Made by a program: the position numbers and the translations under genes. From assembly GCA_003209655.1 (NCBI GenBank), contig QCPW01000004.1:104029-168028 (forward strand): 64,000 bases of DNA, in the 5' to 3' direction. Numbering within the stretch: position 1 is the first letter of the stretch; each line of letters begins with the position of its first letter. The stretch comes from Prochlorococcus sp. AG-442-M23 (GTDB taxonomy: Bacteria > Cyanobacteriota > Cyanobacteriia > PCC-6307 > Cyanobiaceae). The notes below the pieces were generated by a model. It searched no databases and was not told where the DNA came from. It worked only from the letters and a program-made list of their open reading frames with translations. Of this stretch, positions 20,539-58,065 are shown piece by piece.

Positions 20539-20745
20539 TTTAAAAATGTTGAGTTGGAGGCAATCTAAATGATTGATAGTCCGCCTGAAATTTAGCAAAT
20601 TTACAAATATAGGAAGCGTATTCCTGACAAAGGGATTATTCGAAAAGTAAAGTTCAATCAATAAGTCTGATAAGACTTCGCTCTATAATTACCAGCGACA
20701 AAAGGGACTAAACTTTGCGAAAACGATCCCCTTTCCTACATATAT
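20539..20745 (+). ncRNA. candidate structured RNA, unassigned
   Basis: No coding frame is visible but several compact hairpins follow each other. These are AGGC-AATC/GATT...GCCT (20558-20586), AGGAA/TTCCT (20611-20625), AAGTCT-GATA-AGACTT (20663-20678) and AAAGGG/CCCTTT (20701-20734). This is the most GC-rich part of the intergenic region. The strand is inferred from the terminator further down. It lacks the conserved cores of RNase P RNA, SRP RNA and tmRNA. A Yfr-type or 6S-like RNA remains possible. Confidence 0.5.
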
Positions 20746-20813
20746 TAAGCTTATGAGTAAATAAACTTTATATATGTATTTTAAAAATGTTGAAAGTATA
20801 AATAAGAATCTTT

Positions 20814-57591: not shown

Positions 57592-57620
57592 AAAAAAAAA
57601 GCCCCTGATTGAGGGGCTTT
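57592..57620 (-). terminator. intrinsic terminator after the PirA-like gene
   Basis: Perfect stem AAGCCCC/GGGGCTT with loop, nine T on the minus strand. 18 bp after the stop of the PirA-like gene. It may also work in the other direction, at the end of a plus-strand transcript. Confidence 0.9.
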
Positions 57621-57637
57621 TATTTTGTTAAATTAAA

Positions 57638-57811
57638 TTATTTAGTGTAATTTACACCTCTGTAATTTAATTCTGCTTTTTCATTACTTGAAGAAGCGTC
57701 ATCCATTCTGTTGGTGTATACGTTTCTTCTATAGGTAAGTTCAATAAGTTGCTTTTTAGCAACTTCTTTGTTTTGAACGTAGTTTTTACCTCTGTAAGTT
57801 AAAGTAGTCAT
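57638..57811 (-). CDS. DUF4278 protein, PirA-like nitrogen regulator
   Basis: Start placed at ATG 57811 (MTTLTYRGKNYVQNKEV), 57 aa; the track's start at 57847 lies inside the riboswitch. Three short LTYRG-like units (LTYRGKNY, LTYRRNVY, LNYRGVNY) identify DUF4278. PirA in Synechocystis is a DUF4278 protein that binds PII and controls entry into arginine synthesis; this homologue may do the same. Own promoter, NtcA site, riboswitch and terminator enclose it, so it is a separate unit. Confidence 0.8.
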   Translation of the reverse strand: MTTLTYRGKNYVQNKEVAKKQLIELTYRRNVYTNRMDDASSSNEKAELNYRGVNYTK

Positions 57812-57837
57812 GTTTCGATGTGACAACACGGCCATCC

Positions 57838-57887
57838 CCCGTTCCATGGTATGACTCGAACTGCGCCCTCCGAGAAGGGTGAACGAA
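57838..57887 (-). promoter_or_regulatory. glutamine-II ('Downstream-peptide') riboswitch
   Basis: On the minus strand: CGTTC, then hairpin CCC-TTCTCGG-AGGG-like, then GCGCAGTTCGAGTCATACC, then GAACG closing the outer stem (57881-57885 with 57840-57844). The layout and words match the Downstream-peptide motif known from marine picocyanobacteria upstream of short genes. Binding of glutamine stabilises the fold and changes expression; it is thought to turn the gene on. Matched from memory of the consensus. Confidence 0.78.
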
Positions 57888-57889
57888 AA

Positions 57890-57903
57890 GTAGCAATTGC
57901 TAC
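57890..57903. promoter_or_regulatory. NtcA binding site at transcription start
   Basis: Perfect palindrome GTAGCAATTGCTAC, i.e. GTA-N8-TAC, the exact NtcA consensus. It lies just downstream of the -10, over the expected transcription start, so NtcA would block this promoter when nitrogen is short. Confidence 0.75.
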
Positions 57904-57909
57904 AAAATT

Positions 57910-57939
57910 ATTATAAGCGAATTTCTCTGGGGATGTCTA
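57910..57939 (-). promoter_or_regulatory. sigma70-type promoter
   Basis: On the minus strand TAGACA (57934-57939), 18 bp, TATAAT (57910-57915). Near-consensus boxes with good spacing. Predicted start is 6-8 bases on, inside or at the edge of the NtcA palindrome. Confidence 0.75.
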
Positions 57940-58065
57940 GCTTTTACAAATAGAAACGAAGACTTAATGTTTTTTTAATTATTATCTAAGGTAAATTTTT
58001 TTATTAATATTCTAAAAAAAGGATTATGTTTATATTTGGTTTAATCTTCATTTAGCAAATTTTTT

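What the first reader, a model, noticed from the sequence alone, without database searches (positions are those of the whole stretch)
57592..57939. PirA-like gene under triple nitrogen control: sigma70 promoter, NtcA palindrome at +1, glutamine riboswitch
Seen directly: TAGACA-N18-TATAAT, then a perfect GTA-N8-TAC palindrome where transcription should begin. An RNA follows whose outer stem CGTTC/GAACG and inner CCC/GGG hairpin match the Downstream-peptide (glutamine-II) motif, then a 57 aa YRG-repeat DUF4278 gene and a strong terminator. Known: NtcA acts as a repressor when its site overlaps the start; PirA (DUF4278) binds PII in Synechocystis; glutamine riboswitches occur in marine picocyanobacteria. 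Inferred: NtcA keeps the gene off when nitrogen is short, and glutamine opens it when nitrogen is rich, a double check on a PII-interacting brake. The gene start in the ORF track is wrong because it lies inside the RNA.
Basis: partly seen in the sequence, partly recalled or inferred. Interest (0 to 1): 0.82.

Follow-up and report, generated by a model that had tools for sequence, protein, structure and literature searches.

The report
Nitrogen-controlled small gene with glutamine riboswitch
In a marine Prochlorococcus genome a tiny gene carries a glutamine-sensing RNA switch and, exactly where its transcript should begin, a DNA site for the nitrogen regulator NtcA; the arrangement is real and already described for a sister strain, but comparison shows that the DNA site accompanies nearly every copy of this RNA switch in the group.

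Summary
On the minus strand lie TAGACA-N18-TATAAT, a perfect GTA-N8-TAC palindrome at the predicted +1 (57903-57890), a full-length Glutamine-II riboswitch (57888-57831, 62.7 bits), a 57-aa DUF4278 gene starting at 57811 (not 57847, which lies inside the RNA) and a strong terminator. The triad (NtcA motif, type-2 glutamine riboswitch, DUF4278) is already published for MED4 PMM1846 (PMC6316151), so this is a further member of a known kind. The 'PirA-like' label fails: the closest named relative is the N-terminal domain of IF17, and PirA is reported absent from marine picocyanobacteria (PMC8092223). New here is conservation: 243 of 254 distinct Glutamine-II copies keep GTA-N8-TAC next to the aptamer. 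Eighteen keep GTA/TAC though the RNA stem is broken; one does the reverse. In freshwater-type copies the palindrome lies upstream of the -10, hence untranscribed. Two copies are identical to predicted amt1 or glnA NtcA sites. So it is a DNA operator, most likely an NtcA repressor site, and not an RNA hairpin. Repression itself, the transcription start and the protein's function are inferred. Most non-high-light copies carry a second NtcA-like site at -42.5, and phages carry the module too.

The parts
57934..57939 (-). -35 hexamer TAGACA
   Evidence: 98-99% conserved per column in 87 orthologous upstream regions
57934..57960 (-). conserved upstream block TTCGTTTCTATTTGTAAAAGCTAGACA (-57 to -31) in high-light Prochlorococcus, of unknown role; it lies where most other lineages have an NtcA-like site
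57910..57915 (-). -10 hexamer TATAAT, beginning 12 nt before the palindrome
57890..57903 (-). operator GTAGCAATTGCTAC (GTA-N8-TAC, NtcA type), predicted to cover +1 to +14
   Evidence: exact match; GTA-N8-TAC kept in 243 of 254 Glutamine-II copies
57831..57888 (-). Glutamine-II (type-2 glutamine riboswitch, Downstream-peptide) aptamer; pseudoknot strands CGTTC 57885-57881 and GGAACG 57845-57840
   Evidence: RF01704, 62.7 bits, E 8.9e-13, full length
57638..57811 (-). 57-aa DUF4278 protein with three YR(G/R) repeats; true start ATG 57811-57809
   Evidence: PF14105, E 3e-10; start
57845..57847 (-). ATG inside the aptamer (CCATGG) that gives the spurious 69-aa ORF
57597..57621 (-). intrinsic terminator, 10-pair stem and T tract
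   Evidence: fold z -4.8

Best explanation
This is a picocyanobacterial DUF4278 mini-gene controlled at two steps. Step 1, transcription: a sigma-70 promoter starts at an NtcA operator. When nitrogen is short, 2-oxoglutarate-loaded NtcA binds GTAGCAATTGCTAC over +1 to +14 and blocks RNA polymerase (inferred from motif and geometry). Step 2, probably translation: the leader carries a type-2 glutamine riboswitch that binds glutamine and turns expression on (shown by others for the family, inferred here from the full-length match). The product, 6.8 kDa and basic, is a stand-alone copy of the YRG-repeat N-terminal domain of IF17 and not PirA; it is most likely a small protein-binding regulator made under nitrogen excess, with unknown target. 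The operator is a fixed part of the module across the family.
For: Aptamer. Copies: 3 in this genome; at least one in 118 of 121 genus genomes and 92 of 151 family genomes. Operator: GTA-N8-TAC in 230 of 240 distinct copies, 229 of them beginning 17-24 nt before CGTTC, and 243 of 254 with the divergent copies added. DNA rather than RNA: 18 copies keep GTA/TAC with a broken stem, 1 keeps the stem without GTA/TAC; at pair 5/10 there are 8 C-A mismatches against 6 U-G wobbles among 47 distinct 14-mers; in 11 divergent copies the palindrome begins 31-35 nt before the aptamer match, and in 7 of these an exact TAN3T follows 8-11 nt after it, so the palindrome is untranscribed there. NtcA: two operator sequences are identical to predicted NtcA sites upstream of amt1 (GTAGCAACGACTAC) and glnA (GTATCAGCTGATAC). 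Published: the ~20-nt distance from the mapped yfr6 start to the motif (PMC2864571) fits +1 at the palindrome; PMM1846 has DUF4278, glutamine riboswitch and NtcA motif (PMC6316151). IF17 relation.
Against: No NtcA binding, transcription start or expression data exist for this locus. The inner G4 and C11, nearly invariant here (229 and 230 of 232), are not required by the general NtcA consensus, and the exact GTAGC-N4-GCTAC form is almost confined to riboswitch copies in high-light genomes, so another factor is possible. No expression platform was found: start-site pairing with the aptamer was no better than shuffles, and the leader fold has z 0.01.
Confidence: 0.74

Rival explanations
1. The palindrome works as a 5'-terminal RNA hairpin that shields the leader from decay or stacks on the aptamer, rather than as an NtcA operator.
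For: As RNA it folds at -6.1 kcal/mol. Covariation exceeds shuffles: 3 pairs change on both sides against 1.0 expected. One copy, L195, changes T-A to C-G in GCAGC/GCTGC.
Against: A symmetric DNA site gives the same covariation. Eighteen copies keep GTA/TAC with a broken stem against 1 the other way. In divergent copies the element lies upstream of the -10 and cannot be in the transcript.
Confidence: 0.12
2. The operator is read by a regulator other than NtcA, dedicated to these riboswitch genes.
For: GTAGC-N4-GCTAC is nearly confined to riboswitch copies in 15 high-light genomes, and G4 and C11 are nearly invariant.
Against: GTA-N8-TAC is the NtcA consensus; some copies are identical to amt1 or glnA upstream sites; the published annotation of PMM1846 names NtcA (PMC6316151).
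Confidence: 0.14
3. The protein is a true PirA: it binds PII and restrains arginine synthesis.
For: Small, basic, nitrogen-controlled protein (one search gives pI 9.7), resembling Synechocystis PirA in size and control.
Against: PirA is reported completely absent from marine picocyanobacteria by the authors who named it (PMC8092223). The window protein aligns with IF17 N-termini. A PirA sequence could not be obtained here for a direct test.
Confidence: 0.05

Closest known systems
PMM1846 of Prochlorococcus MED4 (DUF4278 gene with type-2 glutamine riboswitch and NtcA motif; PMC6316151)
   Same: Same three parts, and about 7 kDa against 6.8 kDa for the window protein; very probably the orthologue (inferred).
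   Different: Window copy comes from another Prochlorococcus genome; operator geometry and conservation were measured here; the upstream half of the promoter was not described in the text read.
Glutamine-II riboswitch (RF01704, Downstream-peptide motif, yfr6 leader)
   Same: Full-length match, short YRG ORF downstream, start codon close by.
   Different: The Rfam model does not include the adjoining operator.
gifB/IF17 of Synechocystis (NtcA-repressed, type-1 glutamine riboswitch, DUF4278 N-terminus)
   Same: Same control logic and same N-terminal domain.
   Different: Type-1 instead of type-2 aptamer; the window protein lacks the IF7-like C-terminus that inactivates glutamine synthetase.
pirA/Ssr0692 of Synechocystis
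   Same: Small basic protein, NtcA-repressed.
   Different: NtcA sites at -33.5 and -48.5, no riboswitch in the text read; PirA reported absent from marine picocyanobacteria.

Membership tests
Glutamine-II riboswitch RF01704 | Covariance-model score above the gathering cut-off over the full model | tested here: met
   62.7 bits against 33, positions 1-60 of 60
Glutamine-II riboswitch RF01704 | Leader position before a short YRG ORF | tested here: met
Glutamine-II riboswitch RF01704 | Binds L-glutamine and switches expression on | not testable with these tools
   shown for the family by others (PMC6698751, PMC6316151)
DUF4278 (PF14105) | Score above the curated cut-off | tested here: met
   40.8 bits against 25.3
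IF17 (GifB) glutamine synthetase inactivating factor | DUF4278 N-terminal domain | tested here: met
   profile match probability 95%, E 1.9e-8
IF17 (GifB) glutamine synthetase inactivating factor | IF7-like C-terminal glutamine-synthetase-binding domain | tested here: not met
   IF7A model hits the 147-149 aa relatives, not the 57-aa protein
PirA (Ssr0692) | Sequence similarity to PirA | tested here: inconclusive
   no PirA sequence could be obtained; absence from this clade is reported in PMC8092223
PirA (Ssr0692) | ADP-dependent binding to PII | not testable with these tools
   needs a binding assay
NtcA-repressed promoter | GTA-N8-TAC in a position that blocks RNA polymerase | tested here: met
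   by sequence and inferred +1
NtcA-repressed promoter | NtcA binds in vitro and represses in vivo | not testable with these tools
   no binding or expression data

The most novel reading that the evidence does not exclude
The type-2 glutamine riboswitch is one half of a hard-wired two-sensor cassette: a 2-oxoglutarate sensor (NtcA operator) and a glutamine sensor fixed next to each other. In most lineages outside the high-light clade a second NtcA-like site (GTATC-N4-TGAAC-NAC) sits at -42.5, the position from which NtcA activates, with the -10 most often 22 nt beyond it; NtcA could then first switch the gene on and later block it, giving a peak at intermediate nitrogen status. High-light Prochlorococcus kept only the blocking site, and phages took up the cassette.
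Probability: 0.3. Interest if true: 0.62.

Novelty: new member of a known kind. Interest (0 to 1): 0.42.

Why it matters
Prochlorococcus has shed most regulators, yet nearly every genome searched keeps several copies of this cassette, each joining a carbon-to-nitrogen sensor to a glutamine sensor in front of a protein of 33 to 58 residues. That makes the small YRG proteins prime candidates for the missing post-translational nitrogen control in the most abundant photosynthetic cells of the ocean, and the fixed operator gives a precise site to mutate and test. The correction from PirA to an IF17-type domain redirects the search for the target.

Tried and rejected
PirA route: a search for the double NtcA promoter of pirA in three genomes taken for Synechocystis-like (inferred from an IF17-like protein of 149 aa) gave many chance hits and no convincing PirA, so no direct sequence test was possible. 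Expression platform: duplexes between aptamer and start region were no better than shuffled controls (135 leaders, mean z +0.3). Structure: the AlphaFold2 model of the 57-aa protein is poor (pLDDT 67, pTM 0.23), so no fold search was run; no relevant solved relative by sequence. Viral pattern scan with palindrome plus CGTTCA: 119 hits, close to the roughly 100 I estimate by chance; only a few are real. The NCBIfam hit of the window protein to an acetyltransferase (E 0.11) is noise.

Full report
WHAT IS THERE. The window belongs to a high-light Prochlorococcus-type genome: 1.63 Mb in 27 contigs, with closest named relatives Prochlorococcus single cells and MIT 9302. Reading the minus strand from 57939 down, the sequence shows TAGACA, 18 bases, TATAAT, six bases, GTAGCAATTGCTAC, four bases, then the glutamine aptamer, a 57-codon gene and a terminator. 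Rfam calls the RNA Glutamine-II at 62.7 bits over its full length. The gene product matches DUF4278.

IS IT MORE THAN CHANCE. Neither the promoter nor the palindrome is unusual on its own count in this AT-rich DNA. Conservation makes them real. In 87 distinct orthologous upstream regions both hexamers and all ten arm bases of the palindrome are nearly or fully invariant, while spacer columns -29 to -24 drift. Across the family, 240 distinct Glutamine-II copies were placed with a profile of the aptamer; 230 have GTA-N8-TAC, 229 of them beginning 17 to 24 bases before CGTTC. At the density seen in this window (10 in 64 kb) a site would fall in that interval about once in 800 copies by chance. 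Sixteen further copies were too divergent for the profile; 14 of these have GTA-N8-TAC too, giving 243 of 254 copies in the joint count (two divergent copies without a site were left out of that joint count).

OPERATOR OR RNA HAIRPIN. A perfect palindrome at +1 could be either a protein site or the stem of a 5' hairpin, and simple covariation cannot tell them apart, because a symmetric protein site changes in matching pairs as well. Three observations separate them. First, 18 copies keep GTA and TAC while the stem is broken, and one keeps the stem while losing GTA and TAC. Second, at the innermost pair C-A mismatches (8 distinct sequences) are as frequent as U-G wobbles (6); an RNA stem should prefer the wobble, while the two are mirror images for a dimeric protein. 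Third, in 11 divergent copies the palindrome begins 31 to 35 bases before the aptamer match, and in 7 of them an exact TAN3T box lies between palindrome and aptamer, so it is not transcribed. The element is therefore a DNA site in the large majority of copies. That it also folds in the transcript is not excluded.

WHY NtcA. GTA-N8-TAC is the published NtcA recognition sequence (PMC6316151). I took GTA-N8-TAC sites upstream of amt1 and glnA, established NtcA targets (background knowledge), from 28 to 29 genomes of the family. Two riboswitch operators are identical over all 14 bases to such sites and several differ by one base. Against this, the exact form GTAGC-N4-GCTAC is almost confined to riboswitch copies in 15 high-light genomes, so a separate factor is not ruled out. 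The -10 box begins 12 bases before the palindrome in 146 of 232 copies, which places the start at its first G; the published distance of about 20 bases between the yfr6 start and the motif fits (PMC2864571). A site covering +1 to +14 can hardly activate and would block the polymerase; that NtcA represses here is inference from geometry and from the behaviour of NtcA-repressed genes such as gifA, gifB and pirA (PMC8092223).

THE GENE. Of 240 copies, 239 are followed by a small ORF with YRG motifs, most starting 27 to 33 bases after GGAACG. There are three main size classes: 55 to 58 residues with three YR(G/R) repeats (the window's class), 33 to 34 with two, and 46. The ATG at 57847 lies inside the aptamer (CCATGG) and is in frame and open in only about half of the testable copies (96 of 183), so the start is 57811. 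DUF4278 proteins of 143 to 155 residues in other cyanobacteria carry three such repeats and a C-terminal part; the two of them scanned match the IF7A glutamine-synthetase inactivating factor model there (one above and one below that model's cut-off); these are IF17. Profile comparison joins the window family to their N-terminus. The window protein lacks the inactivating C-terminus. This agrees with the review that discusses these genes (PMC6316151) and disagrees with the PirA label; PirA is reported completely absent from marine picocyanobacteria (PMC8092223). No PirA sequence could be fetched, so the last point rests on the paper.

HOW IT PROBABLY WORKS. Nitrogen shortage raises 2-oxoglutarate, NtcA occupies the operator and transcription stops. 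With nitrogen in excess NtcA leaves, the leader is made, and glutamine binding to the aptamer allows expression. Type-2 riboswitches are ON switches and probably act on translation (PMC6698751; PMC6316151). The gene thus needs low 2-oxoglutarate and high glutamine together. Shown here: the parts, their conservation, the operator nature of the palindrome.

COMPARISON WITH WHAT IS KNOWN. The triad has been described for PMM1846 of MED4 (PMC6316151); the window copy is very probably its orthologue in another strain. It works like gifB of Synechocystis (NtcA plus a type-1 glutamine riboswitch) but is not IF17, since one defining domain is missing. What I did not find in the papers read is that the operator accompanies almost every type-2 copy, and the following second element.

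A SECOND ELEMENT IN OTHER LINEAGES. In 78 of 112 copies outside the high-light type, GTA(T/A)C-N4-(T/C)GAAC-N-(A)C lies 47 to 50 bases before the palindrome, with the -10 most often 22 bases further on. This is the spacing of NtcA-activated promoters, although the right half reads AAC instead of TAC. Its full form is found mostly at riboswitch copies (20 exact matches in 22 genomes, most of them next to listed Glutamine-II positions). A phage copy has the perfect GTA-N8-TAC form at this place. High-light genomes have a different conserved block there. Whether NtcA both activates and represses such genes is open.

PHAGES. Two viral contigs with clear phage genes carry the whole Glutamine-II cassette: L309 (Hsp20, 2OG-Fe(II) oxygenase) and L282 (terminase, portal, major head protein), each with operator, aptamer and a 52-residue YRG ORF. 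No match to the window protein or to the L309 cassette was found among 50,697 phage records. Type-1-like glutamine leaders are common in cyanophages (385 records similar to one query).

VERDICT. Observation confirmed, interpretation partly supported, a new member of a known kind. Interest lies in the fixed pairing of the two sensors and in the second NtcA-like site, not in the locus by itself.

Noticed in passing
L309:2248-2500 (IMGVR_UViG_3300006754_000011, 74 kb) and L282:1476-1225 (IMGVR_UViG_3300022074_000968): Phage contigs (Hsp20 and 2OG-Fe(II) oxygenase; terminase, portal and head protein) carry the complete cassette: GTAGC-N4-GCTAC at +1, Glutamine-II aptamer, 52-aa YRG ORF. L309 also has a perfect GTA-N8-TAC at the -49 position. 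Not found in the annotated phage collection.
   Followed up: partly
Upstream of Glutamine-II copies outside high-light Prochlorococcus, e.g. L135, L168, L201: Second conserved element GTATC-N4-TGAAC-NAC, 47-50 bases before the palindrome, in 78 of 112 copies, most often 22 nt from the -10; found mostly at riboswitch copies.
   Followed up: partly
Viral contigs L591-L675 (e.g. L594, L603, L645): Cyanophage type-1-like glutamine leaders: many have an inverted repeat of variable sequence but kept complementarity around the -10 box (GGTCTATAATAGACC, TGTGTTAGTATTAACACA, GGTATGCTAACATACC) and often a GTA-N8-TAC site further upstream. Looks like fast-changing operators; unexplained.
   Followed up: no
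L480:4510-4700 and L502:2331-2530: Phage contigs with the GTAGC-N4-GCTAC palindrome, what look like two tandem type-1-like glutamine aptamers (read by eye; Rfam did not call them) and a 58-67 aa protein with three YRG repeats.
   Followed up: no
L502:2075-2263, L524:560-759, L566:8037-8236: manA RNA (RF01745) sits close to a glutamine leader in three viral contigs.
   Followed up: no
window 20548-20772 (-): Yfr8/9 cyanobacterial RNA (RF02360), 224 bits.
   Followed up: no
L003 (own genome C7:51063-51125): Third Glutamine-II copy of this genome: operator GTAGTTAATACTAC and a diverged 33-aa ORF (MVNMYFNGKSFVYCKRQEEKLIKLTYRGSSYLR) that DUF4278 does not detect.
   Followed up: partly
L192, L217, L227, L228, L230: A class of 46-51 aa products ending in HEAM(K/R)AEMG has lost the palindrome before its Glutamine-II aptamer, a natural operator-less control group.
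   Followed up: no
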